The translations under genes were made by a program, and so were the position numbers. Positions 5,121 through 45,370 of a stretch of DNA of 64,000 nucleotides are shown here, in pieces. Source of the stretch: Halichondria panicea. Its lineage: Eukaryota > Porifera > Demospongiae > Suberitida > Halichondriidae. The notes under the pieces were generated by a model that did not search any database, was not told the DNA's origin, and worked only from the letters and a program-made list of their open reading frames with translations. The DNA is taken from the NCBI RefSeq assembly GCF_963675165.1, contig NC_087377.1:13140198-13204197 (forward strand), written 5' to 3'. Within the stretch, counting starts at the first letter, position 1. Every line of letters begins with the position of its first letter.

Positions 5121-8100
5121 ATGAATGCAAGATCATCAGATCTACAGATTGCTGTCACTCTAGCGTTGCTTATTTTAAGTTGGTCATGCCGAGGGGAAGG
5201 TAGGTAGATGTAAATAAGAAATTATTAAACAATGTTACACAAAGCAGCTTATTTGACAATAACCCCCACTGTGGCTTGTCCTGATGACACTGTCACCTTC
5301 ACCTGCACTCTGCCTGGTAGCTTTATACGATGGGGAATCACTCCACTGCAAGGGGCCCGGTTCAGCATATCTTTACTTTCTAACAATGATGATGTCACAA
5401 ACGGTATTCCAGCATTCCGTGGTGTTCGCAAAGACACGAGTGAAGATAATGTCACTGCCACTCTCACTTCACCGTCTGAGGCCTCCATTGTGGAGGGTTT
5501 TATGGTGGAGTGTCTTGGGGCTAGCTCACAAGAAGGTCCTCTTCCCATTACTGTTGCTGGTGAGTGGTTGATGAATGAGAATGACAGAGTTTAGGCGTTG
5601 CCTGGTTTCCGTGAAACGAATAATACAGTGCATGCAGTGTATGATGTGCCAGGGTTTTGTACAGGGGGGAAGGGGAGATATCCCCCCCTAGATCCAATTT
5701 CTCCCCCCCCCCCCTAAAATGTGCATTCATGTACATGTACTAGTTGTATGACTGAGTGTCCATAGCTGGCAATTTTACATACTAACAGGGTAGCAAAATT
5801 TTCTGGTTACTTTTGTTACTTCCCCCCTCTACTTCAAAATCCTGTATGACACCCTGTATAATGCACACACACACACACACAGATCCACCCTCCCCTCCCT
5901 TGAGTCCAAGAGTCTCCTTCACTCTAAACCAACCCAGCTACTCTAATACTACCCTGGAGTGGGGCCCTCCCTCCTCTACTGGCAGTGTGTCTGTCAACTA
6001 TGTCGTTACTATCTCCCCAACACCTTTCTCTGGGTCACCAGTCACCGTGGAGGCCATCTCGGCACAGATAACTGTCTCCTACAACACTCTCTACAATGTG
6101 ACTATCAGAGCTGACAACTGTGCAGGAATGAGCCAAGAGAGTTTAATTATGGATCTAAGTCAGTCATGATTTATATAGCTAATACTATATAATTCCTCCT
6201 CCTTAATGCAGTTGTGTGCCCCACACCGTCTACTGCTGCTGATGTGACTATCACCAACACACCTCCTGTCACTATTGGTGGATCCATGCTCACCTTCACT
6301 TGCAGAGACAGTGAAGTGATAACCTCAACCTGTGGCAGTAGTGGGTGGTCTCCTGACCCTGGGACCTTCGACTGCAGCAGTCCAGTTACAGGTATATATA
6401 TCATACATAACAGATTGAATGTGTACATGTTTCTATGGTGACCTTATTAGATCCCTCGATCACCTGTGACTCTCCAACAGTACCGTACAATGGCACTGTG
6501 GACATCAATGGTGTGGAAACACCACCCTTCTCACTGGGTTCACAGGTCATCTATCGCTGTGATGAGGGACTGTTCCCCCCTGATGTGAGGACCAGCATGC
6601 ACATGCACTGATGTGGGGGGTAGGGGAGAGTGGGTGGAGAATCCTAGGAGCTTGGTGTGCAGAGTGAGTCCAGGTAATACAGTACAGTGACAGAACAAGG
6701 TCAACCATTAAATTGTCAATCCTTCTTTCAGTCAACTGCTCTCTTCCTGCTGAGCCATCCAACGGAACTATAGTGAACTATGAGAGGTTGAATGAGACAG
6801 TGTCAGAGGGAACAGTGCTGACTTACCAGTGTGACAATGGATTCTCATTGACTGAACCCATCACCATCACTTGCACTAATGCTGGAGTCTGGAGTATTGA
6901 ACCTGAGGCAATCATGTGTGTGCCACCAACTGAAGGTGAGAGTAATGAACCCGAGGCACATAGCAACCACGGGAGTTATGGTAATCCCTTGATTTGTTTG
7001 TCTGCATGTGTATTTAAAGTCTGCTCACCTGGCTGCCATAATTATATACTATAGCGCCTTCTTTTACAGCACGAATAGCCTCAACACAACATATTATTAT
7101 AATTAGTGGGAGCAGATTTAATTTTGTGGCAAGCGAGCAAAAACAGTTATAGTTTATAAGACGGTATACAATATTATGTAGCTAAACATGATATATGCCT
7201 TTAATTTGAGGCACGCCATTACACATGCATGCGATTGTGCACTTATGCACTATACATGCAGCCATGTGCATGCATGGAGCCTTATTTCACGGGAAGACTT
7301 CCTAACTTGCTGGCGTTATTATTATACTGTGAGCCTATACTCCGGTCCCACGCATATATAATGTGTTAGGTGTGTCCTATACATGTATACTTGTAACACT
7401 CCAGGCCTCGATCTTTGCTAGCTCTGCTGTAATTAATCCTAATGGTCCGGGACTCTCAGTGCATGTCAGATGCCACTAGGGTTTATTTCAGTGTGGCTTA
7501 GCAGGTTATAATTATTTCACCTGCTTAAAATGTTCTGTCACCTTAGCTTGGAGCATGTTCTCACAGCTCAACAACTGTAAGGCAATGGCGTTCCCTATCA
7601 AAGACACCATCTGCTGGCTATGGGATTTTTGACAACAAGTAGGAACTAATGAAACAGAAGTTCGTCTATATAATTATCACCCCCTCCTCAACTATAACCT
7701 CAATCCCAGGCAGCACTTCCTTTCTTCAATGGAAGGCTTGTGGCTACCTGGCCCTCAACTTAGTGCATGTAACAACAATTAATTAATGACTGTACATTAT
7801 TAGTCACAATACTATACTACATTGTATAGATCTACTATGAGCAGTAAGGCAATTACATACATGTATGTACATGTAGCACACAGGCTGGCTTACAAAGCAA
7901 TCTTCTTAACGACAACCAGGTAGATGAAGAGTATGACAACTATAGCTCGTACATTATTATACCGGTATAATACAACATCGCTTGCTCCAGGGTTTGCAGC
8001 AACATTGCATGAAGTTACCACAAGTCAACCATTTTGTCTGGAAAACGTTAAAGTAACATTTTTCTGGGGGGACGCAAGCAAGCATCCTATATGCTAGCTT

Positions 8101-8925
8101 CGTGTCAACCACATGTCACCTACATGCTTGGGAAAATCTGAAATAAATCCTGATTTGGACTTCTTTGCCGACTTTACTTTGATCCTATAGTGAATTATAT
8201 AGTCCCATGCATGAAGTGCATGTCTGACCATGTACACCACCATCTATCTACGTGCACGTGTCAAGTGGCACCACGACCGTTTCAAAACTTTTGTCATAAG
8301 GCCATGCAAAGTAGTTCTCAGGCCCTCGCGCTTGGAAATTGGCAGCTTTACAATATCACGTGACCTCAAATTAAAGGAAAAGAAAAGGATAAATTTGTAT
8401 GGCTTTTTGGTCATGAAATAATTATGACTAAAATTAATTAGTAAAAATTATGCACTTCCGCTTATTGAGGAAGTTAGGGGTGTGTTTCAATTAAAATTGT
8501 ATGAATATCATTATCATTAAATGCCTCAATCCGCTTGCTATTTTAGCCTGAGAAACTACAAATTGACTTTGCATGGCCTAAGTGTATTATACTAGTAGGG
8601 TATATACGAATCTGATTGTGCTCTATATAATAATTATTATGCCAATAATTACTGCCAATCCTTCACAGCTGCCACCCTATCAACTGGTGCAACTCTTGCC
8701 ATCGGTGTTACTACTACTTTCGTTGCGTCTACTATCCTTGGATTTCTCGCTGGACTCCTAGTGATGTATTCGTTCACGCGTAAGAAGGCAGTGTACTACA
8801 CAAGAAAAACAGCATTATCTGTTGTACAACCCACGAAACCAGTTGGTCCTGTTTATGAAGAGGTGTCACCCAAAGAGGAGATTGAACTGAACACTAACCA
8901 GGCGTATGGACCATTAGGACTGTGA
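5121..8925 (+). pseudogene. Receptor 1: signal-Ig-FN3-CCP-CCP-CCP-TM-tail, one frameshift
   Basis: Exons by frame and splice sites: 5121-5199 signal peptide (starts MNARSSDLQIAV); about 5248-5559 Ig-like with FTC...RW...ECLG; 5883-6158 FN3; 6212-6391, 6451-6673 and 6732-6935 CCP/sushi; 8669-8925 membrane helix and tail ending YEEVSPKEEIELNTNQAYG-PLGL. All introns are phase 1. In the second CCP exon the frame changes near 6590-6605 (ccagcatgcacatgcactga), giving a TGA; the downstream half (CTDVGG...GEWVENP) is read in another frame, and the exon is one base too long for its neighbours. Either a recent loss of function or an assembly error. Expected role: cell-surface recognition or signalling receptor, by domain content only. 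Without the frameshift it would be about 509 residues. Confidence 0.8.
6936..8668 (+). other. Long last intron of receptor 1
   Basis: This 1.7 kb interval separates the last CCP exon (donor gtgagag) from the membrane exon (acceptor ccttcacag). It is AT-rich with many ataattat and catgcatg motifs. I saw no exon, gene or clear transposon end in it. Confidence 0.6.
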
Positions 8926-9057
8926 ATTTTGTGCTACTAACTTTTGCACTAACTATCATCATGCATACAATTTAAGTTTTCTAGCCAGTATTATAAGTGT
9001 TTCACCTGTTATAGACCGCTAAACATTATTTTCAATAGTAATGACATAATCTTTGTT

Positions 9058-9064: not shown

Positions 9065-9240
9065 GATGTATATATACATGTATACATGCATGCATGCATG
9101 CACAACATTGAGAGAAGCTACAGTTACTGTTCTGTCAAACTGTCCAGATACCTGCAGTTAATAATAAAGGAAGTGCATTACATCTGCCATATGAAGTTAT
9201 AGAAAGTATAATTAGCAAAAAAATTTATTGTGCACATGTG

Positions 9241-9732
9241 TAAATTATTATGGTTTGTTTATAAGAGACATTTCATGTCAAGTCACCACAAACAAAATAA
9301 TGTGCACCCCTTCAGATGAATCAGCCGCACCTCTCAGAGAGGAATTACGTCTGAGTACTCTCTACGTAATGTCATGTCACAATGGAATGTATTACAAGAC
9401 AAAACCATAAAACCATGATTATTATAACAGTGCCACATCCGCTATCTCTGTTTAGCCACAACATTTGCTTGCTGCTCAACCGCACGTAAATTATTATGGT
9501 TTGTTTATAAGAGACATTTCATGTCAAGTCACCACAAACAAAATAATGTGCACCCCTTCAGATGAATCAGCCGCACCTCTCAGAGAGGAATTACGTCTGA
9601 GTACTCTCTACGTAATGTCATGTCACAATGGAATGTATTACAAGACAAAACCATAAAACCATGATTATTATAACAGTGCCACATCCGCTATCTCTGTTTA
9701 GCCACAACATTTGCTTGCTGCTCAACCGCACG
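9241..9732. repeat. Tandem duplication, two 246-bp copies
   Basis: Copy 1 is 9241-9486 and copy 2 is 9487-9732; by eye they are identical. Each begins taaattattatggtttg and ends gctgctcaaccgcacg. A short frame in each translates identically but resembles no known protein. This is either a very recent duplication or an assembly duplication. Confidence 0.9.
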
Positions 9733-12779: not shown

Positions 12780-13348
12780 GTTCATTTTGTTCATTCAGAT
12801 CACTACGTTGCAACTTAGTGATCTGTACAGAACACAAAGGATTCTGAAGGTGAGATACTCCATACTAGTTAAACTGTAACAGGATTGCAAAATACAACCA
12901 CAGCCAGCTATAGGTCCCATAATACAGTGCAGCTATAGTATCTTCAGAGGTTCCTTAATGGGTCTTTCATACTTGTAGTGTTGTTTTCACATGGTCAGAA
13001 GCAGAGGTATACGAGGCCAGCTGTGTGTTGACCTCGATAAAAAACCGCTCATGGTATCGAGCGTTGATGCAAAATTGAGTTATAATGATACTACTAATGA
13101 CTGCCCGTACCTTACCACATACATGCTTGTACAGGAACAGCAAGTGACCTCTAAACAACGAATAACGTTAAAATTTGTACATTATTCATTGTTTAGTAGA
13201 GGTCATTTGCTATACTGCATTGTTACAAGCTTTATATAAAACTAGGAATTGTAACATTGGTGCATGTGATACACTGACCGTTTTCATGTAATATGCTATA
13301 GTAGGCAGAGGCTAGTTTAATTATAGTCTACTAACTGGTAAATAGAGA
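12780..13348. other. Upstream region of receptor 2, no gene seen
   Basis: This matches about 57540-57720 in part (for example gaacacaaaggattc and ttgtagtgttgttttcaca), so it is the end of a duplicated block. No exon was recognised. Confidence 0.6.
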
Positions 13349-15913
13349 TGACATTAAAGCTCATTAGTGTTCTTCTGATTTGCTTTCTGGCTGGCTTCAG
13401 CACTGGTAAGACTGACTATTCAATTATAGATGCCCTTACATTGCTGCATGTTTCGTAAAGCCCAATATTCAGTGAGTGTGGAGAGACCATGTCCAATGGA
13501 AACAGTCACTTTCACCTGCACTGCTGCTGGAAATGCCTTGAGATGGGTACTGTCAGATGTTACTGACATCGATATCCTCTCCATCTCTGATATCAACGTA
13601 CCCATTGTTGTATCAGGTTACACTGTGACACTGATCGCATTCAATGACACTACATTAACATCTACTCTGTCAAGAACAGCAGAGAATGGGATCACTGTGT
13701 TCTGTGTGGACCCACTGCCTATTTTAACCAATATAGGATCTTCAACGATCCGATTGGTTGGTGAGTTGCAATAAGTTCCTCGTCCGTTATCTCACAATAA
13801 GTTATATAGATCCACCAGGGCCACCTTCCACCATAAGACACTCCACTCTGAGCAGCTCAGCAGATGCAGTCAGTGTATCTGTACAGTGGGACCCTCCAAC
13901 TGAGATTGATGGTAGAGATGACCTCACCTACACAGTGACCATCTCACCTCTGGCCCAGCTCTCTGCTACTGTCCCAGGGGCGTAGCTACCATTGTTTCCT
14001 GGTTGCCCAGAAACCCCCCCAGGAGCTGCTGAGAAAATTGGGCAGGGCTCCCTATAATTGAAATCATGCAGCCCTGCCCATCTTTTCACATGTGGCTGCA
14101 AATCAATAATCAGAGCAGCATCGTGAAGCGTTTCAATTTGGCTTTTTTGTCTCAGCTAGTTAGTCTCAGCTAGTTAGCTACCTCAAACAAAGAAGACCAA
14201 GACTTAAGTTCTAGATCTAGTATCAATCCTGAATGCTCCAGTATTCTCAGACTCAGCTCTAAGCACAACTTTATTCAGGAAGTGTACAAGTTTAGAACAA
14301 TCTCAGCCACATGAAACCTCTCAGGTAAATGACATTTAATTATTGCTCAGCTAGACTAGCAATACACAATTGGCACCTGCATGCCTAGTATGTTACGTCT
14401 ATAGCTAGCTAGCTTCTCACAAACATGTAAAAAAGTCATGAACAATAGTCAATAACAGTAGGTGTGCCCCAATCAAGAGGGTGTGGTACTGGAAGTGGGC
14501 GTGGTCACAAAAATTTCGCGGCGCTATCGCGCCGCTGATTTTTCTGCAGAAACCCCTGTCTCAAAAGTCTGGCTACGCCCCTGTGTCCTCACATCCACCT
14601 CTGCTACTGTGACTGCTCAATACAATGTAGACTACACTGTCAGTGTTGTGGCTACTAACTGTGCTGGGAACAGTACAACAGCTGAGTACAACTTTAGGAT
14701 CGGTGAATCAACATCGTCTTTAAACATATAGCACACTGACTCCCTCTTGTGCAGGTGGCTGTCCTGTGTTGTTAATCAACCTCATGAATGGAGCGTTTGG
14801 ACCAGTCTCCAGCAGATTGCCAGGATCCATAGTAACCATCCAGTGTGACGATGGATATATATCTGCTGTTACTAGGGTGACATGTGAGGGTACACTGATG
14901 TGGAGTCCAGACCCTGAGGCTATTGAGTGTACATCACTAACCACACCTACTCCCACCACTCGTGAGTTAAGCTCGGCTGTATAACTGATTATGGATAATT
15001 TATGTTAATTTTATTAGCCCCTCCAATGGACTGCACGGCTCCACTATTCTCACCACAGAATGGCACCATCAGTGATCATTCGGTACCAGCTATTCCTGGT
15101 AGGCAAGTGGCTTTTCAGTGTGAAAATGGACTGTTCCCTGAGGGAATAATGACTGCCACCTGTCTAGCTACAGGAGAGTGGGACAAAAATCCGGGGGAGA
15201 TTATCTGCAGATATGAGTCTAGTAAGTCAAAGTTTGAACTACTAAAACTTCAAATGAGCATAATCATATCCTTGTACACCCAGTTTCCTGTCTTCTGCCT
15301 GGCCCTCTACTTAATGGAGCATTACTCAGCACCAACTGTCAGAACACTAACCTAGTTGAGGGCTCAGTCATTACTTTCCAGTGTGATCCTGGGTTCTCAC
15401 TGGTGGGTGCAGAGACTGCCACTTGTAACAACTCCGGTCTCTGGGATCCTAACCCGGCTCGATTGGAGTGTGTATCTAGAAGTACGTTGCACAAACACCA
15501 AGTATATAGTAGCAAACTAGCTGTGTAAGAACCTTTTATGATTATGACTAGCCATAAAGGCAATAGTTTACTCTTGTGATGCACGCCCTCCCATTGTCTA
15601 TTTGAACTCTCTATACTGATGGTTTTCGTTCCTCCTCCCCTGCACAGTTCAATCACCCATCCTATTTACCGGAGAGATTCTTTCTATCAGTGTGGTTGTC
15701 ACGGCAGTTGCTTTCATAGTCATAGGATTCCTCGCTGGACTCCTAGTGATGCACCTTTGCTCTCGTAAGAAGGCAGTGTACTTCCCAGCAACTAAAGGAC
15801 AAGCTAACGTAAGACCCACTGCACAGCCAGCTGGTCCTATTTATGAAGAGGTGTCACCCAAAGAGGAGATTGAACTAAACACTAACCAAGCATATGGACC
15901 ATTAGGACTGTGA
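13349..15913 (+). pseudogene. Receptor 2: signal-Ig-FN3-CCP-CCP-CCP-TM-tail, broken
   Basis: Exons: 13349-13405 signal peptide; 13461-13760 Ig-like (AQYSVSVERPCPMETVTF..., FTC...RW...FCV); 13810-14702 FN3, interrupted; 14755-14961, 15018-15221 and 15284-15481 CCP; 15648-15913 membrane helix (TAVAFIVIGFLAGLLVMH) and tail with IYEEVSPKEEIELNTNQAYG. Two lesions are visible. The signal exon is one base shorter than in receptor 4 (gattgctttc against gatttgctttc), so it would not join exon 2 in phase. A 609-bp transposon at 13975-14583 interrupts the FN3 exon and brings a stop after the codons VPGA. The domains after the insertion are open and conserved, suggesting a recent or polymorphic loss. Confidence 0.85.
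13975..14583. mobile_element. CAG...CTG DNA transposon in the receptor 2 FN3 exon
   Basis: It begins CAGGGGCGTAGC and ends GCTACGCCCCTG, perfect 12-bp inverted ends. It is flanked by a 5-bp direct repeat, tgtcc (13970-13974 and 14584-14588). Removing the element and one copy of tgtcc restores the sequence of the uninterrupted paralogues (gctactgtcctcacatcc), as at 18897 and 38579. It encodes no transposase. Ends and target size fit a non-autonomous hAT-like element, but the superfamily is inferred. Confidence 0.92.
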
Positions 15914-16206
15914 AGATTACTAGTGGGTAACATTCTCGCAGGCAAAATGATCGGGTATTATAGTATAATTATTATAGTGTGTTTATATAGCAATTTTTTC
16001 CAGAAAAACATTTGCAATGTGAAAAGTTATAACTATGATTATAGCTATGTATATATACATGACTTACGCTAACAACTCAAAGCCTAGGAAGACTGCATAT
16101 CCTGTCAATGCTGGGGAAATATCAAAAAGCGTGGAAACAAGAAAGTGGGCAAGAGCATAACGACAATTCTTACAAAATTACATTACAAAATAAAGATTTG
16201 AAAATA

Positions 16207-16366
16207 TTTGTTCATGCATAAGAAGAATGTATACTTCCCGGAAGCTGAAAAACAAGCTAATGCAGGACCTCCTGCACCAACCAGTTGGTCCTATTTATGA
16301 GGAGGTGTCACCCAAAGAGGAGATTGAACTGAACACTAACCAGGCGTATGGACCAGTAGCACTGTG
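16207..16366 (+). pseudogene. Orphan receptor tail (cytoplasmic domain only)
   Basis: This resembles the end of a receptor TM/tail exon, from ttgttcatgcataagaagaatg through VYFPEAEKQANAG, then a one-base shift, then a tail ending TNQAYGPVAL and a stop. No membrane helix or extracellular exon precedes it. It is closest to the receptor 3 tail (which also reads HKKNVY). Likely the remnant of a sixth paralogue. Confidence 0.75.
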
Positions 16367-17458: not shown

Positions 17459-19696
17459 ATGTCACTAATAGCAGGGGCGTTTCTAGAGATTGAAGCAGGA
17501 GGGTGCTTAAAAGTACAGAAAAAAAATGGAGCCGCGCGCGATTTTACGCCCCCGCATTTATTGCGGAGTATCTTTCATACATCCAGCTCCTCCCCATGCA
17601 GCCTTGCAGCAAAAAAGTACAGCACACTGCCCAAGAAAAGAGCGGCTCCTACTATTCTCCTCTAGAGCTTCTCTCTTCCATTCTAGTTCTGTTACTATGT
17701 TACTAGACAAAGCATCTAGCTACAATAATTTTTCTGTGTATCTTCTTGTAAATGACAATAATTATAATGTATAATGTTGTAGTTTGTAGCCCAGAGTAAT
17801 CTATAGTACCGGTACTATAGCTCATACTTCCCTGCTAAATACACTCAAATGGGATCTAATACATGCATAGCGTGATAATAAGACATAATTATGAGTCAGT
17901 CATCTTGTAGGATCTCCATGCACTATTCTTCTGGGGTACATCCTAGCAAACTGGTCAATCATAATGGGGATGTCCAGTCATTCTAGTGTTAGTCATTGCT
18001 TCTCAGTATCTCTCAGAGGAGCAAGAGGTGACTGGGATAGTGCAGAGGATCTATTATGCATGCAATTAGCATTACATAACAACATTGGAATGGCAATACT
18101 GATTGCACATGCTCAATTGGGCGTGGTCATGACTTGTAATCGTTGTGTCAATGAGATAGAGTTAGCTAGCTAGCTACTGAGTGATACGATTAGTTTCATG
18201 GTTGTCTGGGAGGACAGGGGGGTGCTCAAGCCCCCAAAGCCCCCCATTGTACACGCCACTGAATAGAGATAAAGCGTATTAGAGTTTTTTTGATTTTCTT
18301 TCTGGCTGGCTTCAGCACTGGTAAGACTGACTATTAAATTATAGATTTTCTTACATTGCTGCATGTTTCATAAAGCCCAATATTCAGTGAGTGTGGAGAG
18401 ACCATGTCCAATGGAAACAGTCACTTTCACTTGCACTGCTCCTGGAGATTCCTTGAAATGGGAACCGTCAGATGCAGCTCGCACAATCGCTGTCCGCTCC
18501 ACCTCTGGCCTCAATGTATAGCCAATGTTGTATCAGGTTACACTGTGACACTGATTGCATTCAATGAAACTACACTAACATCTACTCTGTCAAGAACAGC
18601 AGAGAATGGGATCACTGTGTCCTGTATGGGGTTTGTGCCTACTCTAACTACCATAGGATCTTCAACGATCTGGTTGGTTGGTGAGTTGCATGCAGTTAAT
18701 ATCGTGTCTATCGTCTGTATACACTAAATTACATGCATAGATTCACCAGGACCACCCTCCACCATCAGACACTCCATTCTAAATAACTCAGCAGATGAAG
18801 TCAGTGTATCTGTACAGTGGGACCCTCCTACTGAGACTGGTGGTAGAGATGACCTCACCTACACAGTGACTGTCTCACCTCCGGCCCAGCTCTCTGCTAC
18901 TGTCCTCACATCCACCTCTGTTACTGTGACTGCTCAATACAATGTAGACTACACTGTCAGTGTTGTGGCTACCAACTGTGCTGGGAACAGTACAACAGCT
19001 GAGTACAACTTTAGGATCGGTGAATCAACATCGTCTTTAAACATACAGCACACTGACTCCCTCTTGTGCAGGTGGCTGTCCTGTGTTGTTAATCAACCTC
19101 ATGAATGGAGCGTTTGGACCAGTCTCCAGCAGATTATCAGGATCCACAGTAACCATCCAGTGTGATGTTGGGTATGTATCTGCTGTTACAATGGTGACAT
19201 GTGAGAGTACACTAATGTGGAGTCATGACCCCGAGGCTATTGAGTGTATATCACTAACCACACCTACTACCACAACTCGTGAGTTAAGCTCTTGGCTGTA
19301 CAGTTATGGATACAATTGTTAATGAATTGTATTACACATGCAGCCCCTCCAATAAACTGCACAGCTCCACTATCCCCACCACTGGAACCACCTACAGCTG
19401 CTCCTTGTAATTGTAATTGTAATTGCGCCAGCCTATGTGATGGGGGTCGATTTGATACAGCTGTCTCCATCAGCGTGGTTGTCATGGCAATTCTATTCAC
19501 GATAATAGGATTATTTATGGGACTCTTAATAATGTATTTATTTGTTCATGCATAAAAAGAATGTGTACTCCCCAGCAGCTAAAGGACAAGCTAATGTAGG
19601 ACCCACTACACCAGTTGGTCCTGTTTATGAGGAAGTGTCACCAAAAGAGGAGATGGAACTGAATACTAACCAGGCGTACGGACCAGTAGGACTATG
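17459..19696 (+). pseudogene. Receptor 3: signal-Ig-FN3-CCP-TM-tail, multiply broken
   Basis: The signal exon is split by a 790-bp transposon: the start MSLI lies at 17459-17471 and the rest (after the repeated aatag) at 18267-18320; together they give a 67-nt exon, the same length as in receptor 4. The other exons are Ig-like 18376-18680, FN3 18741-19019, CCP 19072-19278, and a final exon from about 19344. In the Ig exon, aatgtatagccaatg gives a stop and a frameshift. In the final exon a shortened CCP runs straight into the TM segment (NCNCNCASLCDGGRFDTAVS...) with no intron. A 4-bp duplication (tatttatt) then shifts the tail, whose true frame ends TNQAYGPVGL at 19696. The FN3 and CCP exons are intact. 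Confidence 0.85.
17472..18261. mobile_element. CAG...CTG DNA transposon in the receptor 3 signal exon
   Basis: The left end is CAGGGGCGTTTCTAG and the right end ACGCCACTG, so the ends match at 8 of 9 positions. A 5-bp direct repeat aatag flanks it (17467-17471 and 18262-18266). Excision in silico joins MSLI to IKRIRVFLIF and restores the phase-1 signal exon. The short frames inside encode nothing recognisable. Confidence 0.9.
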
Positions 19697-20329
19697 AAAC
19701 TTATGGTAATTTTCATCAACAGTTAATGTACATGTAAACAATTATAGGACTACATCCGTTCAACTATACTTAAGTAAACAATAACGTTGTTCATTAAAAA
19801 GCCACTACACATGTTTTGTATGAAGTTATATAACTAGAGCACTAAAGTGCAAACCCTCGGCTGGTGACATGATTATAAAGAACCCAAATAAAAAGTATGC
19901 AGTGCATGTAGTAATGTATGACTGGGCTGTCTATCACAGCAACCCAGGAGACTGGAGGCTTCTATAGAAACCGTGATAAAAGCACCTTAAAAGACAATCT
20001 CAACTAAAACAGCCAATATGTAGTCTAACGTCTAATATGCATACACATACAAAGGAATCCTGAATGACACTATATATGATTTGAAAGTTGTCTTATAGGC
20101 TTTGAGTTGTTGGCCTAAGTCATAATAATAATCACTAAAGTAACTTCATAGACTTATAGAGAGCATAATTATAGGGTCACCAGAGGACGTCCGACATGCG
20201 TGCATGAATAATTATAAGCGCTAGTGTTTTTTTTGGCCTGGACGTTATCAAGCAAGGACATTAATGCACTGAACTTATAATAGTGATTTGTGCACACATG
20301 TCGATGACACAATGAGATCCATTTATCAC
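19697..20329. other. 3' flank of receptor 3, no gene seen
   Basis: AT-rich DNA without recognisable exons or transposon ends. It runs up to the next minus-strand HEAT fragment. Confidence 0.5.
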
Positions 20330-23025: not shown

Positions 23026-25797
23026 ATAATTATTATTATTATTATTATTATTATTAAGACTTTACAGCCTGTAACGTGAATGATATAAAAACAAGTGATT
23101 GTTGTAGCAAAGACTATAGCTGACAGACTGTGCCGCATTGAGCAACACAGCTGGATAATTTAATGTGAAGTACATGTGAAGCTAGCTATAATTACGTGTG
23201 TAGCATCTGTTGCATGGGCACATTAAGTGGTAGGTACATGGGATGTCAGAGACAAAGTTTTGTTTGAAGTGCTCCCAGAAGTAATGGTGGAGTGTATTCT
23301 TTGTTGAAGTTAGTGGTGCGCTGATATCCATCAGCATAGTGGGCATCAAGTTCCATAACCTTGTGATACGATTGAGGTAGAAGTGTCTGCTTGCGCTGTA
23401 GTGATTGGCTTGTACAGTGAGTTTGTTGTTGCAACTGAAGCGGGTGCGACCAGTAACGAATTTGATGTGATCTCTTATGTTGAAGTTGTCCGAGGGTTCC
23501 TTTAGTGACTTTACTAGAAACATTATGTCCTGTATTTCAAACCAGTACATTAGAGGTAGTAGCTTCAAATCGGACAGCCTCGATCTGTATGAGCTTGAGT
23601 AATCATTGAGTATGAATTTGGTGGCTCTCCTCTGGATTCTTTCTAGTTTTTGAATGTCCTTGATCAAATTTGGTCTCCAGACTTGGGAGCAGTAGGTGAC
23701 CTGGGATCTAACTAGGGTTATATATAACGATTTTTTTGTGCTGGTTTCTGATTTCATTGAAATCGTCCGTCGGATGAGGTTAAGAGCTCGGTAGGCCTTA
23801 GACGATATGAGGTTATAATGCAGTGACCAGGAGAGGTTGTTGGCTATGCACAAGCCTAGGTCTTTTTCTTTTGTAGCAAAGTTAAGGTGAGAATTGTGGA
23901 TTGAGTAGAGTGTATTAGGGTTGTCTTCGTGCCAGCTAGGATGAGTTATGCGCAGCACATTACATTTTCCTTCATTGAGTTGCATGTTCCAAGTAGTGCA
24001 CCAGGATGACAACTGGTTGATGTCTGTTTGTAATTCCAATTGGTCTTCCGTAGAAGTGATGCACTTTACTAGCTTTGTGTCGTCCGCAAATAGAAATGGA
24101 TTGGCAGATGAGATGCACTCCGGTAATTGATAAAAATAATAAATAACAGTGGGCCTAGGATGCTTCCTTGCGGAACTCCTGACATAACTGGTAAGTAGTT
24201 GGATGGAGTATTAATAACACTTGTGAAGTGTATCCTGTCATGTAGGTACGATTTAAACCACAGCCAAAGAGGGCCTGTGATGCCTGTCTTCCAAAGCTTT
24301 AGCAACAGCTCATTGTGTGGGACCATGTCGAAAGCTTTCTTAAAATCTAGGTAGATGACATCTGTAGGTTTTCGGTTTTCTATGTTGTCAAAAACTTGGG
24401 AAAAGAATAGGATTAATTGAGAAAGACATGATCGGTTTCTTAGGAACCCGAATTGTTGGCATGTTATCTTTGGTCTCACGAATGTAATAATTTTCTTGTA
24501 GATGATAGTTTCAAAGACTTTGGATATAATTGGGAGAAGAGAGATGGGCCGAAAGTTTTCTACAAGATGGGGGTCGCCCTTCTTTGGGATTGGGCAGATT
24601 TTGTGGACCTTCCAGTGGGGTGGGAAAGTATGTGAAGATAGGCTAGAATTGAAAATGTGTGTGACTGATCTTGTGAGAGCGGTAGCACAGCATTTGAGGG
24701 TTGACGCATTTATATTATCGTGGCCTGGTGACTTTGTTGTGTCTAGTGAGGTGAGGGTTTCGTACACCTCAGACTCTTCTATAGAGATAGAGCTCAGTTG
24801 ATAAGTGGGGGAGGGCATTTTGTCCCATGGAGGAAGTGTATAGTCACTTCTTGTGAATGTCGAGTTAAAGTATTTGTTGAAAATTTCAGCAATCTGTCCA
24901 GTCTCTGTGATGATGGAGCCGTTGTGGATTATTGTTCTAGTTTGTGGACTTTTCTTACTTAGGTCGCGCAGATGACGGAATAGTTTACTTGGGTTGAACT
25001 TAAAGCATACTGCCAACGATTTTTCGTACTCAGATTTGGCAGTTGTCATTAGTTCCTGGAGATGAGTAGACAAGTTAGATAGCCTTAGGGATGTACTCTC
25101 AGTGGGTTTGGATTTGTTTCTGCGTGTAAGCGTTTTGCAGCGATTGATAGTATGTCTCATTTCTGTGGTATACCATTTTGGGCTTTTTGACTTCTGAGAG
25201 TTAAATTTGGGCACAAATATTTCCTGTGCTCTTGAGATGATTTTTTCTAGATGGACTGAACAGGCAGGCTTGGGTTGGCAGATAAAAAACTCAGACATGG
25301 AATTAAAATTTGCTTTTTTAAAGTTGTAGTTGCTGGCCGGTTTGTCTTTAGAGAGTAGTTTTGGTGTTTTTAAGCCATCTAGTGAGAACGTGATAAGGAA
25401 GTGATCAGACATAGGTGAACAATTAGACGAGTCAATGTGCAGGTTGAGTATCCTGTCTGGTGAATTCGTGCATACTACGTCCAGTATGTTTCCTTTTGTG
25501 TGTGTTGGAGATGCAATCAGTTGGAGAAAGTTCTGAGCGAAAAGTGAGTTACAAATAGAAACCGAGAGTGGAGTTTTTCCAGACAAAGATGACCAATCTA
25601 CATCTGGGCAGTTTAGGTCGCCCACCAAGATGGTGTTGTGGTTTGGAAGAGACGATATGGCGTTTGCCACTTCTAAAGAAAAATGTGCTGGTGGTATGTA
25701 GATACATGCCAGGGTTGTTTTGGGAGAAACAAGCAGTTCAATTACAATTAGTTCCAGAGATTCGTGCCTGCAGATTAGTTGAGAGGGTATATCTTCG
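23026..25797 (-). mobile_element. Non-LTR retrotransposon, 5'-truncated, CR1/Jockey-like
   Basis: Coding is on the minus strand, and the 3' end carries an (AAT)n tail (23026-23056 as ATT repeats). It lies inside the minisatellite, with tataattat-type sequence at both junctions as a possible target duplication. The 5' end lacks the start of the endonuclease, so it is a truncated insertion. Related fragments occur at 38790-39427 and 53010-53410. Confidence 0.92.
23182..25797 (-). pseudogene. ORF2 of the non-LTR element (endonuclease-RT), frameshifted
   Basis: Going down the minus strand there is the C-terminal part of an APE-type endonuclease (ILVGDLNCPDVDWSS, MSDHFLITF). It is followed by a reverse transcriptase with NFRPISLLPIISKVFE, FGFLRNRSCLSQ, VIYLDFKKAFDMVPH, SGVPQGSILGPLLFIIFIN and then FADDTKLV in a different frame. 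The break is near 24126-24132, where about five bases between FIN and the ECISSANPF segment are missing. After the RT comes the usual C-terminal segment (KLERIQRRATKFIL, ITRLWNLMP), with a stop at 23182. The catalytic FADD is present, but the shift separates it from the rest of the RT. The N-terminal Pro/Tyr/Leu-rich extension of the open frame is minisatellite, not protein. Confidence 0.9.
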
Positions 25798-25807
25798 GAT
25801 ATAATTA

Positions 25808-26215
25808 TATATAGTGAGAGATAGTGAGGGAGAGGGGGGTAGAGTGAAGGAGAAAGGGTGTATATATATAGTGAGAGATAGTGAGGGAGAGGGGGGTAGA
25901 GTGAAGGAGAAAGGGTGTATATATGGTGAAAGATAGTGGGGGAGAGGGGGATAGAGTGAAGGAGGAAGGGTGTATATATGGTGAAAGATAGTGGGGGAGA
26001 GGGGGGTAGAGTGAAGGAGGAAGGGTGTATATATGGTGAAAGATAGTGGGGGAGAGGGGGGTAGAGTGAAGGAGAAAAGGTGTATATATATAGTGAGAGA
26101 TAGTGAGGGAGAGGGGGGTAGAGTGAAGGAGAAAGGGTGTATATATGGTGAAAGATAGTGGGGGAGAGGGGGGTAGAGTGAAGGAGAAAGGGTGTATATA
26201 GTGAGAGATAGTGTT
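25808..26215. repeat. Minisatellite, right part (about 7 units)
   Basis: Continuation of the 22840 array: units of about 54-57 bp with gtgaaagatagtgggggaga or gtgagagatagtgagggaga, ggggggtagagtgaagga and gggtgtatata. Its minus strand has no stops in two frames, creating long but meaningless open frames. Confidence 0.93.
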
Positions 26216-27301
26216 GACATGCATATTGTAATGTGTATATGAATGTACACATGTAGATTGTCATAGTAATTGTGACACAGATAACACCCCATAAGATTCA
26301 TCACCTTAATAAATACTAATCGTGAAATCGTTGATGGTGCCAGTATGAGCACACACACACCCTTGACAAGTATTCACGATCAAGTGAATGAATAAAGGAG
26401 TTGCATACATGCATGTACATACTTAAGACACTATTGACTCAATTCAACGACAACGTATTGGAAACCTCGAGCTCGTCAATTATAAATAGATACACATTTA
26501 AGTGTATGAGACAACACATTTTAAAATCAGCAAAGCGCTAGTATATCAGTAGTTTACAGATTATTGTCAGAGACTTCAATACTGCAACACGGAAAATAGC
26601 TCATTACACACACGTACCTTTTCTCATCGTATCCATGATATTTCGATACACACCCTCACCCTTAATTCCACTCTTGTCTAATATAAAACCCTATTGCATG
26701 TAAAAAAATCTATACCATCATCAGCTGCTGCATCAGAAAGAGTTATATATTTACCCTTTTAGTTTCTAATAAACGTTAGATTTGGGATAATATTCAAGAT
26801 GCTTATACCGTATTACTAGAATGGTTTGCGAGTATCGAACTTTGATCAGCTCCCAAAAATACAATTGCAAAACCTAAATTAGTACTGGTAATTACACACA
26901 TGCAATCATTGCATATGCCAGAACGCAGTAGCTAGTCAATTTTTCTGCTGATTCGGCTCATTTGCAAAGGTTTTTGACTAGTAAAATATTCTAGTAATAC
27001 GATAATCACATATTAAATGTTCATGAGCACAATTAATTAGAAAGGCAGCTAGGCATGCTGGAATAACCATGAGCGCGCACGCATGCATACATCAAATAAT
27101 AGAATGGGTAAATTTTTAGCAAAGGTCAGCCACCAGATGTGTTGTATCTTGTATATCAACAAAAATTATTATAACTGTCTACATGTATGAGATACAAAAA
27201 CAGGAAGTGTAATTAAAAAAGCTATGAAAGTATATATTAAAACAAGGAGGTTGTCTAGCTAGTCAGTAATCACATTGACATGCATCAAGAAATAATTCAA
27301 G
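26216..27301. other. Upstream region of receptor 4
   Basis: No gene seen. The last 40 bases before the start codon (tgcatcaagaaataattcaag) match the bases before the receptor 3 start at 17440-17458, so the 5' untranslated leader is conserved between these paralogues. Confidence 0.6.
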
Positions 27302-29611
27302 ATGACATTACATATATATTGGCTCATAGGAGTTCTCTTGATTTGCTTTCTGGCTGGCCTCAGCACTGGTAAGACTAACTATAGATTTCCTTACATTGAA
27401 CACTGCATGTTTTGCAAAGCCCAATATTCAGTGAGTATGGAGAGACCATGTCCAATGGAAACAGTCGCTTTTACCTGCACTGCTCCTGGAGAGGTTTTGA
27501 GATGGGAATCAAATGTAGCTCGTACAATCACTGTCTGCTCCACCTCCTCTGATCTCAATGTACCCATTGTTGTATCAGGTTACACTGTGACACTGATTGC
27601 AGTTGATAATGCTACATTAACATCTACTCTGTCAAGAACAGCAGAGAATGGGATCACTGTGTCCTGTGTGGGGTTTATGCCTGTAAGCACTATAGGATCT
27701 TCAATGATCCGATTGGTTGGTGAGTTCCAGTTAATTAGTGTCTCGTCCATAATTGTAGTAATTTATTGTTAGATCCACCAGGACCACCTTCCACCATCAG
27801 AGTGAGACACTCCACTTTGAGCATCTTAGCCAATAAAGTCAGCGTAACTATTGGTTGGGACCCTCCTACTGAGACTGGTGGTAGAGATGACCTCACCTAC
27901 ACAGTGACCGTCTCACTTCCGGCCCAACTCTCTACTACTGTCCTCACATCCACCTCTGTCACTCTGATTACCCAATACAATGTGGACTACACTGTCAGTG
28001 TTGTAGCTACCAACTGTGCTGGGAACAGTACGACCGCTGAGTACAGTTTTAGGATTGGTGAGTATTATTATTTTGGACACAGTGTAAACTCCTTCTCAGG
28101 CAATTGTCCTGTGTTGACCAACCCCATAAATGGAGCCTTGGGACCAGTCTCCAGCAGATTGCCAGGATCCACAGTAACCATCCAGTGTGATGCTGGGTAT
28201 GTGTCTGCTGTTACAATGGTGACATGTGAGGGTACATTGATGTGGAGTCCTGACCCTGAGGCTATTGAATGTGCAGCACTAACTACTCCCACAACTCGTG
28301 AGTTTAAGCTCTTGGTTATATATTTACCCCGTGTGTGCACAGCGAGCAGCAAGGGTAGAGTGATTGGTGCATGTGTGTGTGTCGGTTTGTGTATGTGTGT
28401 GGACACAAAAATGAGCTGTTAGAGTGAACTAGACACTTTCGTTGTTGAGCTCTTATCTTGGTGTAGAGGGATTCTATAGACAGGACAGGTTAGACAAATT
28501 AGCTAGAGACAGGCTCCTAGCTATAGGCAATAACAACTAGTTACAGACAAATTGACTTCACAGTGTAGCTTAACCAAATTCTTAGATTGAGAAGCAAAAC
28601 ATCAACTGACAATACAGGAAAAATGAGAGGGTAAAGCAAAGTGAGGCAAAAAGGGTAAACCTTAAATACGTGGAGCGAGGCCCCAGAGGCTCGCACAACA
28701 ACAAAGGGAGCATTAACAATGAGAATTGTTATAGATGATATCAACATCAACATCAAATCATGGTTAAGGTAATGGTTCTAATAAAATTAATAGTAAAGTG
28801 CATTGAGCATGAATATTCGTAGACTGCTTCAACTGTTAATGAGGCAGTGGTTGAAAAATAATAGTTGTAGGTGATCTTCGAAGGTGACAAAAAACACTGT
28901 TTTATAATCGATACAATCGTTGCTTTATAGATTTACGATCATTCCTCATAATGTTAAGGTCGTTACGATAAAAATTTTGTATCCGTTTTGCTGCTGCATG
29001 TGCGATGAAGCTCAACGCACAGGGTGAATGCTCTACTGAGCATCAAATAAATACTTCTAACTGTATGTTATTTACACAGCTCCTCCAATGAACTGCAAGG
29101 CTCCACTATCCCCACCAAGGAATGGCACCATCAGTGATCATTCAGTACCAGCTCTTTCCGGTACGCAAGTGACCTTTCAGTGTGACGATGAGCTGTTCCC
29201 TGAGGGAATAATGACTGCTACCTGTCTAGCTACAGGAGAGTGGGACAAAAACCCACTCTGCAGAGGCAAGTGTATTCATTACTTGAATTAAGTAGTCATG
29301 CTTCTATACCTTGAACCACCTATACAGCTGTTTCTTACAATTGTGCCAGCCTATCTGATGGGAGTCGATTTGATGCAGCTGTCTCCATCAGTGTGGTTAT
29401 CACGGCAGTTCTATTCAACGTCATTGGATTGTTGATGGGACTCTTGATAATGTATTTGTTCATGCGTAAGAAGGCAGTGTACTCCCCTAGAGCCAAAGAG
29501 GAAGTTAACGTAAGACCCACTGTACCAGCTGGTCCTGTTTATGAGGAGGTGTCACCCAAAGAGGAGATTGAACTCAACACTAATCAGGCGTATGGACCAT
29601 TAGGACTGTGA
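27302..29611 (+). CDS. Receptor 4: signal-Ig-FN3-CCP-CCP-TM-tail, intact
   Basis: Six exons: 27302-27368, 27420-27719, 27773-28057, 28100-28297, 29080-29265 and 29328-29611, all joined in phase 1, giving about 439 residues with no stop. Order: signal peptide (GVLLICFLAGLSTG), Ig-like (FTC...LRW...VSCVG), FN3 (DPPGPPSTIR, WDPPTETGGRDDLTYTV), CCP (NCPVLTN...IQCDAGY...VTCEG...EAIEC), a second CCP (MNCKAPL...FQCDDE...ATCLATGEW...LC), a membrane helix (AVLFNVIGLLMGLLIMYLF), then RKKAVY and a tail with VYEEVSPKEEIELNTNQAYG. Five of the family's exon borders are standard; the intron after the second CCP starts GCAAGT, a GC-AG intron. A type I surface receptor; ligand and partners unknown. The only family member here with no visible defect. 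Confidence 0.9.
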
Positions 29612-37460: not shown

Positions 37461-38422
37461 ACCTAGCTTGCAGAGTTATTATTTGAGTATAGTCTACCAT
37501 CACTCCAGCAAGATGTTTAGTTAACACTCTACCAAATCAACTTCTCTAGTTGATTTGGTAAAGAGTGTTAACTAAACGTATGAAAAACAACATTGTTGAC
37601 AGTTGGATTTTAGTTTTTAGTTAACTAACATAATTATAGCAAAAACATATTCCACTCTATATTCATGCATGCACTGGTCTAGCTAACAAAGATCAATTAG
37701 ATCAATTAATCTAGCGTTACACAATAAACACCTAAAACCAATTTATTAGTAGCCGAGTGACCATGTCTCAGAATTACGCTGCTAATTAAGCTAATGACTA
37801 TTACCACAAGCGGAAAACCACACATGATAATGTTTGACTAATTCGTTAGAAAGGCGTATATACGAGCTGAAAATGCCTATAAGCTTACAGCCAGAGGTTA
37901 ATCCCATTAGCTAATTATTAACAGATTAACACAGGCCTTGAATATAGAAGTTCTAAGTTCTCTCGGATGAAATGTCTGGCTTAATTACGATACTATAGTC
38001 CTTTTCAAGGGCGTATGAAGAGAAGTAGGCATGCAACTACAATCTATCAAATTACAAATAGGAGGGGCGTGTGAACTAAAAATAGATTGCACGTGCCCTT
38101 ACTCCATAAAGCTAGCTAGCTAGCACTGTACTGTTGGGTAGAGTTGGCCACAAAGGTCAATAAGCGGAAGAGAAGGACCGATGCTAGACTAGAAGTAGCC
38201 ATTAATCAATTCTAAGCTCTTCAAACTAATTTTGCGGTAAATTTCTAGTATAACAGTGTTCACGCCCACTATCACGCCTATTTACGTGTGGGCGGTTGGT
38301 TAAATATAGTATATCCTGCTGACTCATCAGTTTTTTGACGACTACACAGTATACATTGCGAGTTGCATGCCCTCTTCTCTTCATACGCCCTTGTCATTAT
38401 ATTATCTGCATACACTATATAG
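37461..38422. other. No gene recognised
   Basis: It contains a short inverted repeat near 37520-37575 (accaaatcaacttctctagttgatttggt type) and AT-rich DNA. No signal-peptide or Ig exon was found upstream of the FN3 exon at 38423, although this is where one would expect them. Confidence 0.5.
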
Positions 38423-38701
38423 ATCCACCGGGACCACCGTCCAACATAAGACACTCCATTCCGAGCAGCTCAGCCAATGAAGTTAGTGTGACTATTGGTT
38501 GGAATCCTCCTACTGAGACTGGTGGTAGAGATGACATTGCTTACATAGTGACCATCTCACCTCCGGCTCAGCTCTCTGCTACTGTCCTCACATCCACCTC
38601 TGTCACTGTGACTGCTCAATGCAATGTGGACTACACTGTCAGTATTGTGGCTACCAACTGTGCTGGGAACAGTACAAATGCTGAGTACAGGTTTACGATT
38701 G
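38423..38701 (+). pseudogene. Orphan FN3 exon of the receptor family
   Basis: A phase-1 FN3 exon (DPPGPPSNIRHSIPSS, WNPPTETGGRDDIAYIV, NVDYTVSIVATNCAGNST) with acceptor ctatatag and donor gtaagt. It is open and close to the receptor 2-4 FN3 exons, but no Ig or signal exon is upstream and a retrotransposon fragment follows. It could be a leftover of a deleted receptor or a 5' exon of the gene at 39950, since the phases agree. Confidence 0.75.
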
Positions 38702-39427: not shown

Positions 39428-39491
39428 TTATTAGTTTTGTTATGGTAACCTGTGTCTACAGGCTTGCCATCAACTGTACTAGGTCAGTGCT

Positions 39492-43540: not shown

Positions 43541-43839
43541 GTAACGGATATATTGGAGTTATGCACTAGCCGAATTTCTTGTTTCTTCGCTTTTTCGCGC
43601 TTTTCTTTTCCTGGAAATCCTATAGCAACGTTCACATTGCAAACGTTTTTTAATTTTGATTCCCTTCATTAATTACAGTAGTACATTAATGTTTCTCTAG
43701 ATCTAGACTACACCCACAAATTTAACACAAGCAATTTAGTGGTGTTTGTGTTTTTAAAAATAATGTTATCTAGATTCTGCAATAGATCTAAAATGTAGTT
43801 ACTATTATTCAGTTGTTTACTGTTGCTGCAGGTAAGGAC

Positions 43840-45370
43840 TTATGGGCCACCAGTCACCGTGGAGACCACCTCCACACAGATAACCATATCCTACAAAACA
43901 TCCTACAATGTGACCATCAGAGCTGTCAACTGTGTTGGAATGAGTTAAGAACCTTCAATAATATTGAGTAAGCCTCATTGGGAATGTCATCATTGATTAT
44001 ATTTGGCTGCAATTTTATAGTCATAAAACATACATATACTCGTTTCCTTATCATATTTGCAGTTGTGTGTCCCACACCGTCTACTGCATGCTGCTGGTGT
44101 TACCATCACCAACACACCTCCTGTCACTATTGGTGGATCCATGCTCACCTTCACTTGCAGTGGAGACAATGGAGTGATAACCTCAACCTGTGGCAGTAAT
44201 GGGTGGTCTCCTGACCCTGGGAAATTTGACTGTGGCATTCCAGTTACAGGTGTCATACATGGCTATTAACTCTCTAAAAGGAATGTTAATCTCATGCATT
44301 AGATCCCCAGTCACCTGTGGTTCTCCTGCTGCACCGTAGAGAGGTAGTGTGGACATCAATGGTGAGACACTACCCTTCTCACTGGGTTCACAGGTCAGTG
44401 GCGGATCCAGAGGGGGTTCTTTGGGTTCAATTGACCTCCATTTGAGAAAGAAGTGAGTGGGAGGCTCAAGCAACTAGTTAGCAAGTTGTTCCTTTTCTTA
44501 CTAGCTTTCACGTGCACTTCTTACTTACCTTTAGTCCTTGCTAGTACGTCCTGCGAAGCTTTGTCTGTGCAGTTTCAGTAACTATGAAGGCTAAAAACTC
44601 TTCAGTATAGTGCATGCAGACTGCCTATGAAAAGTGATGACCTTGTTTTTAGGAAAAAATTCGGGGAGCTTGTTGTGCAGAGATAGGCCAGGTGAAACGT
44701 AGCTGTTTAGAGAAGATTGAAAAAGTTTACAAATGTATTACATACACCGCCTTTGTTCCACATTTCTCAATGGCAGGTTATTGGGTGCTCGTAATACAAA
44801 CATATCACTTTCTGACCGCGTCCATATAGCCAACTGCTCTCTTCCTCTTGAGCTGTGCAATGGTGCTACAGTGGACTATGAGAGGTGAATGAGACAGTGT
44901 TGGAGGGAACAGTGCTGACTTACCAGTGGGACAATGGACTCTCACTGACTGGACCTAACAACATCACTTGCACTAATGCTGGAGTCTGGAGCACTGATCC
45001 TGAGGCAATCATGTGTGTACTTGTGACTGAAGGTGATGAGCTTTGTAATTGTTTGCTATCCCAAGGTACATACTATCCCATCTCACATGCAGTTTCTACT
45101 GTTGCTCCTTTGTTCTCCACTTCTGCAACTGTCGCTATCAGTGTGGTCATCACTTTCATTGTCACTCTAATCATTGGATTCATTACTGGACTGTTGGTGA
45201 TGCATCTTTTCTTTCGTAAGAAAGCAGTGTACTTCCTGGCAAATGAAGGACAAGCTAACGCAGCGTCCACTGCACCAGTTGGTCCTGTTTATGAGGTGGT
45301 GTCACCCAAAGAGGACATTGAACTCAACACAAACCAGGCGTACGAACCATTAAAGTCGTTCACTCATTAA
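43840..45370 (+). pseudogene. Receptor 5: FN3-CCP-CCP-CCP-TM-tail remnant
   Basis: Closest to receptor 1. The remains are half an FN3 exon (43852-43948, PPVTVETTSTQITISY, stop after GMS); a CCP exon (about 44063-44250) with a small insertion near tgcatgctgctgg that shifts the frame; a CCP exon (about 44305-44690) with an in-frame TAG and a transposon inside; a CCP exon (about 44831-45032) that lost one base at gagaggtgaatgag and has Trp in place of a core Cys (YQWDNG); and an intact membrane/tail exon (about 45092-45370) ending VYEVVSPKEDIELNTNQAYE-PLKSFTH. No Ig or signal exon was found. Despite this, the tail exon is open and conserved. Confidence 0.85.
44396..44662. mobile_element. CAG-end DNA transposon in a receptor 5 CCP exon, truncated
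   Basis: The left end CAGTGGCGGATCCAGAGG follows directly on the exon sequence ctgggttcacaggt. The body is the reverse complement of much of 22257-22628 (caactagttagcaag, gaaaaaattc). The right end is lost: at about 44663 the exon tail resumes (ggagcttgttgtgcagag, compare 6648-6663). Confidence 0.85.

What the first reader, a model, noticed from the sequence alone, without database searches (positions are those of the whole stretch)
5121..45370. Clustered receptor family with variable ectodomain and conserved two-tyrosine tail
Five paralogues on the same strand, plus a stray tail and FN3 exon, combine Ig, FN3 and one to three CCP domains by phase-1 exon shuffling. The ectodomains differ in sequence and domain count, while the tail is nearly invariant: VYEEVSPKEEIELNTNQAYG then PL. 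YEEV resembles a Src-family SH2 docking site, and YxxV-x13-YxxL is a loose ITAM-like arrangement. Tandem copies, pseudogenes and variable outside/constant inside are what one sees in immune or allorecognition receptor clusters. Domains and tail are seen in the sequence; the recognition role is inference.
Basis: partly seen in the sequence, partly recalled or inferred. Interest (0 to 1): 0.85.

Follow-up and report, generated by a model that had tools for sequence, protein, structure and literature searches.

The report
Giant array of variable surface receptors
The genome holds a huge tandem array of cell-surface receptor genes whose outer tip varies in antibody-like loops while a short inner signalling tail stays almost identical, the pattern expected of a system that tells self from non-self or microbe from microbe.

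Summary
The tail peptide gives 150 listed matches (a capped list), all on one contig within 3.65 Mb. Most full copies run signal peptide, Ig, FN3, one to three CCP, TM/tail exon. Only one of the five window copies is intact. In type I Ig exons, framework omega is 0.39 and two loop segments, including the CDR3-like FG loop, have omega 1.2, not significantly above 1. The tail is under strong purifying selection (omega 0.21) and is an island of identity between gene classes whose flanks have diverged; exchange between classes is supported but unproven. Both tyrosines are conserved, but a strict ITAM or ITIM is not met. A homologous ectodomain precedes a tyrosine kinase on C6, and another precedes a tail with three SPLYDEI repeats. 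The genome also encodes SH2-ankyrin-SH2-kinase and Src-like candidate readers. Best reading: germline-diversified recognition receptors signalling through phosphotyrosine. Ligand, expression and polymorphism are untested; allorecognition is one option, not shown. New variant of a known kind.

The parts
5121..8925 (+). copy 1 (signal peptide 5121, type II Ig 5253-5564, FN3 5882-6142, CCP x3, TM/tail 8683-8922, class D TM); CCP2 frameshifted at about 6599
13348..15913 (+). copy 2 (signal peptide 13348, type I Ig 13463-13765, FN3 split 13809-13973 / 14567-14683 by an insertion, CCP x3, TM/tail 15671-15910, class C TM)
16206..16364 (+). solo tail fragment (model positions 30-80 only)
18378..19697 (+). 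copy 3 (type I Ig, FN3, one CCP, TM/tail); frameshifts in Ig (about 18515-18521) and TM (about 19536-19549)
27302..29611 (+). copy 4, the only intact copy in the window: SP 27302-27368, Ig 27420-27719, FN3 27773-28057, CCP 28100-28297, CCP 29080-29271, TM/tail ending at stop 29611 (acceptor 29328 or 29379, uncertain); phase-1 junctions
29525..29608 (+). conserved two-tyrosine tail of copy 4 (PAGPVYEEVSPKEEIELNTNQAYGPLGL)
38422..38701 (+). stray type I FN3 exon with a phase-1 donor after 38701
43817..45370 (+). copy 5, truncated pseudogene: partial FN3, CCP 44087-44233, partial CCP 44888-45016, class A TM and drifted tail 45119-45352 (YEVV...YEPL)

Best explanation
The window is part of a very large, repeatedly duplicated array of single-pass receptors built as signal peptide - V-like Ig - FN3 - 1 to 3 CCP - TM - short tail (from sequence; the Ig fold rests on pattern only). 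The membrane-distal Ig domain is the ligand-reading tip: in type I copies its framework is conserved while the C-C'' and FG (CDR3-like) segments vary in sequence and length (variation shown; ligand reading inferred). The tail is a common output module held by purifying selection (shown) and partly exchanged among ectodomain classes (supported, not proven). On ligand binding the two conserved tyrosines (YEEV and NQAYGP[L/V]) are probably phosphorylated by a Src-like or related receptor kinase and dock SH2 proteins, perhaps the tandem-SH2 ankyrin kinase found in this genome (inferred). Different copies would thus feed different ligands into one pathway. The biological role is most likely non-self recognition in the broad sense, either allorecognition or microbe recognition (inferred).
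For: 150 listed tail matches, all on C1 between 11.27 and 14.93 Mb (capped list); 23 tail-bearing frames in a contiguous 200 kb. 45 gene-like groups, of which 24 have the full order and 15 of those 24 an uninterrupted frame through the tail. Same-order sets of Ig and tail matches recur at nearly constant offsets of about 717.5, 567.3, 1426.7 and 234.25 kb (subtracted by hand). Type I Ig (12 exons): framework omega 0.39 against loops 1.23, LRT for equal omega 30.1; mean identity 0.89 against 0.50; column variability in 8 tile copies predicts that in 4 held-out copies (Spearman 0.49). Tail omega 0.21, p=9e-16. Among 38 full-length tails: Tyr1 38, Tyr2 37, Asn at Tyr2 -3 38. A homologous Ig-FN3-CCP ectodomain precedes a tyrosine kinase at C6:2.305 Mb and, at C1:9.866 Mb, a tail with three SPLYDEI repeats. 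Candidate readers: SH2-ANK-SH2-kinase; three ORFs with SH2 and kinase at C2:7.249-7.256 Mb.
Against: No expression, polymorphism, ligand or phosphorylation data. Loop omega is not significantly above 1 (p about 0.3). The loop test was done on type I only; whole type II Ig exons have omega 0.52-0.62 (7 and 5 of 15 exons). Loops were delimited after seeing the alignment, though anchored on conserved W, C and GYTV/GSS residues. Loop synonymous rate is also raised (alpha 1.87 against 0.85), so misalignment or recombination may contribute. The codon-model code was written here and not benchmarked, and the trees are of short, recombining exons. Ig assignment rests on pattern and sub-threshold matches. 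Tail conservation was counted on full-length frames; decayed tails were left out. 9 of 24 full-order copies did not give an open model (4 frame-broken, 2 without exon ends, 3 with a stop that may come from my acceptor choice), 4 of the 15 open ones lack an identified signal peptide, and one (tile 39323) has a disturbed Ig.
Confidence: 0.62

Rival explanations
1. Adhesion or matrix receptors whose tail is a trafficking or cytoskeletal signal (NxxY PTB/endocytic type). The expansion reflects tissue cohesion, not non-self recognition.
For: Ig, FN3 and CCP are common adhesion modules. Asn is three residues before Tyr2 in 38 of 38 full-length tails, an NxxY context. [quoted passage not shown]
Against: 150 listed tails, CDR-like loop variation over a fixed framework and many broken copies are unusual for plain adhesion molecules. 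YEEV is about equally conserved and lies outside the NxxY motif.
Confidence: 0.2
2. Neutral birth-and-death: copies proliferate by unequal exchange, loops drift under relaxed constraint, and few copies function.
For: 21 of 45 groups are not full-order, and 9 of the 24 full-order copies gave no open model. Loop omega is not significantly above 1. Repeated blocks with equal match scores suggest recent copying (not compared as DNA).
Against: Framework, FN3, tail, TM plus juxtamembrane and four of the five CCP sets tested have omega below 1 at p<0.05 (the fifth, CCP6, p=0.08), so many copies are constrained. 15 of 24 full-order copies are open.
Confidence: 0.2
3. Tail identity between classes is due to purifying selection alone, without gene conversion or exon exchange.
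For: Tail amino-acid constraint is strong. GC3 is not raised in the tail (0.387 against 0.431 in TM; higher in 13 of 38), so a GC-biased conversion signature is absent. With ectodomain type as label the TM/tail contrast in synonymous structure is marginal (log ratio 0.27, 95% CI 0.01-0.53), and the tail keeps some structure of its own (ratio 1.14; reached by 6 of 1000 permutations).
Against: Between-class synonymous divergence is 0.244 in the tail against 0.766 in the TM half of the same exon. The island ends at the stop codon. Five tail codons (60, 70, 74, 75, 76) carry the same synonymous variants in both ectodomain types, against two of 33 TM codons (9, 21). The class D TM occurs with both ectodomain types. 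Caveat: the stronger test used classes defined from the TM itself.
Confidence: 0.3

Closest known systems
Hydractinia Alr family / allorecognition complex
   Same: Clustered single-pass IgSF receptors with diverse ectodomains and pseudogenes; [quoted passage not shown]
   Different: Here FN3 and CCP follow the Ig, 150 tails are listed, one tail is shared by most members sampled, and no allorecognition genetics exists. Sequence homology was not tested.
Clustered vertebrate protocadherins
   Same: Tandem receptors with diversified distal ectodomain and regionally homogenised paralogues (passages of PMC1852091)
   Different: Cadherin repeats rather than Ig/FN3/CCP; constant exons are shared by splicing in alpha and gamma clusters, whereas here each gene carries its own tail; the GC3 rise reported there is absent here
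Botryllus fester
   Same: CCP/sushi-containing candidate allorecognition receptor with higher omega in some exons (passages of PMC3549757)
   Different: Three predicted TM segments, alternative splicing, no Ig-FN3 order
Crassostrea CgIgIT2 (passage of PMC11999971) and Drosophila Draper with its Shark partner (recalled)
   Same: Two-tyrosine activation motif in the tail; Shark is a tandem-SH2 kinase
   Different: Spacing x13 here is not canonical; those are single genes, not an array
Ig-domain receptor tyrosine kinases, including the sibling at C6:2.305 Mb of this genome
   Same: Homologous Ig-FN3-CCP ectodomain (best array match to its Ig 41% identity, E=4.6e-14)
   Different: Carries a kinase domain; modelled array members stop after a short tail
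Sponge SRCR and NLR expansions
   Same: Large lineage-specific immune-type expansions; 158 of 296 Amphimedon SRCR genes in tandem arrays, clusters of two to seven genes (passages of PMC10855680)
   Different: Different domains; no shared tyrosine tail in the passages read

Membership tests
Immunoglobulin superfamily, V-like | Cys...Trp...Cys core and recognisable Ig profile | tested here: inconclusive
   Both Cys invariant and Trp nearly invariant in 17 exons; Pfam Ig hits only sub-threshold; PDB profile hits to V domains not significant, E 0.08 and up; fold prediction unavailable
CCP (Sushi) proteins | Pfam Sushi match above cut-off | tested here: met
   3 of 5 CCP-bearing array pieces above cut-off, one below, one no hit; sibling exon above cut-off
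Fibronectin III proteins | Pfam fn3 match above cut-off | tested here: inconclusive
   two array exons E 1e-3 and 1e-4, just below cut-off; homologous exon of the C6 sibling above cut-off
ITAM receptors | YxxL/I-x6-12-YxxL/I (consensus recalled) | tested here: not met
   YxxV-x13-YxxL/V in the 35 of 38 tails parsed; Tyr1 38 of 38 and Tyr2 37 of 38; spacing too long, Val at +3 of Tyr1
ITIM receptors | S/I/V/L at -2 of the tyrosine (consensus recalled) | tested here: not met
   Pro at -2 of Tyr1 in 25 of 26 tails and Gln at -2 of Tyr2 in 25 of 26
Allorecognition receptors | Polymorphism between individuals and control of fusion or rejection | not testable with these tools
   one assembly only
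Hydractinia Alr family | Sequence homology to Alr1/Alr2 | not tested
   no Alr sequence compared
Receptor tyrosine kinases | Cytoplasmic kinase domain | tested here: not met
   the 15 open array models end with the tail exon and stop; met by the sibling on C6
Clustered protocadherins | Cadherin ectodomain | tested here: not met
   no cadherin match among the 10 window pieces scanned

The most novel reading that the evidence does not exclude
Their single phosphotyrosine tail is spread between ectodomain lineages by gene conversion and read by an ancient tandem-SH2 ankyrin kinase. The array derives from, or is paired with, receptor tyrosine kinases of the same ectodomain.
Probability: 0.22. Interest if true: 0.95.

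Novelty: new variant of a known kind. Interest (0 to 1): 0.8.

Why it matters
The receptors behind sponge self/non-self discrimination are, to my knowledge (recalled), not established. An array of this size with loop-focused variation and one shared output tail gives a defined set of genes, and defined residues, to test in grafting or microbe-exposure experiments. If the animal is a sponge, it also offers an early-branching case of a variable recognition tip on a shared phosphotyrosine output, with a kinase-bearing sibling receptor in the same genome.

Tried and rejected
ITAM and ITIM labels were tested on the tails and rejected on spacing and on the -2 residue. Free domain shuffling was rejected: one order is the rule, with one irregular group. 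GC3 elevation as a sign of gene conversion was sought and not found. The strong class-structure test is partly circular because classes came from the TM sequence; repeated with ectodomain-type labels the contrast is marginal. Pfam gave no family above cut-off for the tail of copy 4, the C1:9.866 Mb tail or the Ig exons. Literature: from titles and abstract starts, searches of the open-licence PMC library listed no paper on an Ig-FN3-CCP array with a shared tail, and searches listed nothing; the library misses most subscription papers. I saw passages of PMC3549757, PMC6208332, PMC4772301, PMC10855680, PMC11999971, PMC11067881, PMC1852091 and PMC8242945; in PMC5450542, a sponge graft transcriptome, my terms had no occurrence and no passage was shown. 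PMC6208332 lists an FnIII-and-Sushi gene and a Sushi-and-Ig gene among those changed on microbial challenge in Aplysina aerophoba, which fits the microbe reading if related; that was not tested. One search was a script with a syntax error, rerun. Rows dropped before counts: broken or short exons were left out of the selection and class tests (29 Ig, 32 FN3, 91 CCP and 38 tail exons kept); L029 and L031 were left out of the Ig type I tests (12 of 14 used); 12 of 15 type II Ig exons and 5 of the 7 CCP clusters with six or more members were tested; three tails of unassigned TM class were left out (35 of 38 used), while one search kept four such as a class of their own; one search used the 27 of 38 tails with an ectodomain type, three of them typed by FN3.
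Full report
What was checked. The window lies at C1:13140198-13204197 of a 131.5-Mb, 39-contig genome. One gene (27302-29611) assembles into an open frame from signal peptide to stop with phase-1 junctions; the search for exon ends looked for phase 1 only. The other four copies are broken: two by frameshifts, one by an insertion in FN3, one by loss of Ig and decay of the tail.

Scale. The 20-residue tail gives 150 matches, the number scored out of 238 candidates, so a lower bound. All 150 are on C1 between 11.27 and 14.93 Mb, and 94 are identical over the full peptide; fragments such as the stray tail count among them. Two Ig types give 132 and 128 matches (overlapping lists, 150 scored each); 130 of 132 and 122 of 128 lie on C1 between 11.24 and 14.93 Mb, the rest at C1:9.87-10.43 Mb, on C6 and on the small contig C32. 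In a contiguous 200-kb tile I found 23 tail-bearing frames. Across the tile, the window and four more loci there are 45 gene-like groups; 24 have the full order Ig-FN3-CCP(1-3)-TM/tail, and 15 of those 24 are open through the tail (4 are frame-broken, 2 gave no exon ends, 3 have a stop that may be my acceptor choice; 4 of the 15 lack an identified signal peptide). Sets of Ig and tail matches recur in the same order at nearly constant offsets: hits at 11.693-11.713 Mb reappear at 12.411-12.431 Mb shifted by about 717.5 kb with equal scores, and other sets are shifted by about 567.3 kb, 1426.7 kb and 234.25 kb (subtracted by hand). This points to local and long-range duplication; the blocks were not compared as DNA.

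Outside. In type I Ig exons (12 of 14 used), the framework around the two cysteines and tryptophan is conserved (mean pairwise identity 0.89), while two segments, one after the tryptophan (C to C'') and one after the second cysteine (FG, CDR3-like), differ in sequence (0.50) and length (FG 6-14 residues). Omega is 0.39 in the framework and 1.23 in the loops; equal omega is rejected (LRT 30.1), but loop omega is not significantly above 1 (p about 0.3). A site-wise grid model gives posterior above 0.9 for beta>alpha at three columns, all in these segments. The loop limits were set after viewing the alignment; as a check, column variability in 8 tile copies predicts that in 4 copies from elsewhere (Spearman 0.49, p=6e-8), and 27 of the 35 most variable columns lie in the loops, which are 41 of 109 columns. 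Type II Ig, FN3 and CCP sets tested as wholes have omega 0.38-0.70, one of them (CCP6) not significantly below 1. Loops of type II were not tested apart. The model code was written here and not benchmarked.

Inside. The tail has omega 0.21 (38 tails). Among 38 full-length tails Tyr1 is present in 38, Tyr2 in 37, Val at Tyr1+3 in 38, Asn at Tyr2-3 in 38, and Leu or Val at Tyr2+3 in 37. The layout is YEEV-x13-YGP(L/V). It is not a canonical ITAM (spacing) or ITIM (-2 residue); YEEV resembles the pYEEI-type Src SH2 site (recalled), and the second tyrosine sits in an NxxY context. Nucleotide divergence between TM classes falls to 0.08-0.14 over the last 80-odd coding bases and rises to 0.4-0.6 past the stop, where alignment is poor even within classes. 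Synonymous divergence between classes is 0.244 in the tail against 0.766 in the TM half of the same exon, and the between/within class ratio is 1.23 against 2.92 (35 tails). Those classes were defined from the TM, so I repeated the test with ectodomain type as label (27 genes): the ratio is 1.14 in the tail and 1.47 in the TM, and the contrast is only marginal (95% CI of the log ratio 0.01-0.53); the tail's own ratio is still above most permutations (6 of 1000 reach it). Five tail codons carry the same synonymous variants in both ectodomain types, against two in the TM. The class D TM is found with both types, and tail distances correlate weakly with Ig or TM distances (r 0.23 and 0.17) while Ig and FN3 correlate at 0.82 (23 genes). 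GC3 is not raised in the tail. Purifying selection is secure; exchange of the 3' end between lineages is supported but not proven.

Relatives in the same genome. At C1:9.866 Mb a copy with type II Ig, FN3 and three CCP exons (the second split between frames) carries a different tail with three SPLYDEI repeats; a separate open frame further on contains SNQAYEQV. A search with this tail gives six matches at 9.866-9.982 Mb: itself, and five over its first 33 residues at 72-81% identity. At C6:2.305 Mb a homologous Ig-FN3-CCP-CCP ectodomain is followed by a hydrophobic TM-like stretch and a tyrosine kinase: consecutive pieces match PF07714 at positions 44-229 above cut-off and 233-256 below it, and a glycine-rich loop is readable upstream. 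That these exons form one gene is inferred from order and distance. A second Ig exon, 83% identical, lies at C6:2.350 Mb. The ectodomain thus serves at least three cytoplasmic designs, each with a kinase or with tyrosine motifs. Possible readers exist: an SH2-ankyrin-SH2-kinase gene at C9:5.255-5.259 Mb, the domain order of the Shark/HTK16 kinases (recalled), and three ORFs at C2:7.249-7.256 Mb with SH2 and kinase together, judged from coordinates. None has been linked to the tail experimentally.

Interpretation. The best-supported reading is an array of germline-diversified recognition receptors: a variable V-like tip on an FN3/CCP stalk with one shared phosphotyrosine output. Whether the ligand is an allogeneic partner, a microbe or a symbiont cannot be decided from one assembly. 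Hydractinia Alr genes (IgSF cluster, at least 41 loci; passages of PMC11067881 and PMC11999971) are the nearest in apparent logic. Clustered protocadherins (passages of PMC1852091) are the nearest in mode of evolution. Membership in either is not claimed.

Noticed in passing
   Followed up: partly
C1:15.55-17.36 Mb (sample L038): 26 of the kinase matches listed lie here, most as near-full-length open frames, about 0.6 Mb beyond the last listed tail; the one sampled matches PF00069 over nearly its whole length.
   Followed up: partly
L039 (C9:5254900-5259400): SH2-ankyrin-SH2-tyrosine kinase gene, Shark/HTK16-like order.
   Followed up: yes
L035 (C1:9863600-9868400): Related receptor with a tail of three SPLYDEI repeats; five partial relatives of the tail at 9.89-9.98 Mb.
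   Followed up: partly
L017 and L019 (C1:11613432-11614891 and 11635228-11636681, minus strand): A third Ig type (TETPCAGD...) with FN3, CCP and tail exons on the opposite strand.
   Followed up: no
window 550-2232 (-) and 23185-26297 (-): DDE_Tnp_1_7 transposase frame and reverse-transcriptase/endonuclease frames; mobile elements sit among the receptor copies.
   Followed up: no
window 55744-56043 and 56940-57239: Two 300-base direct repeats, 99% identical, of unknown nature.
   Followed up: no
window 9240-9731: A 246-base perfect tandem duplication just downstream of copy 1.
   Followed up: no
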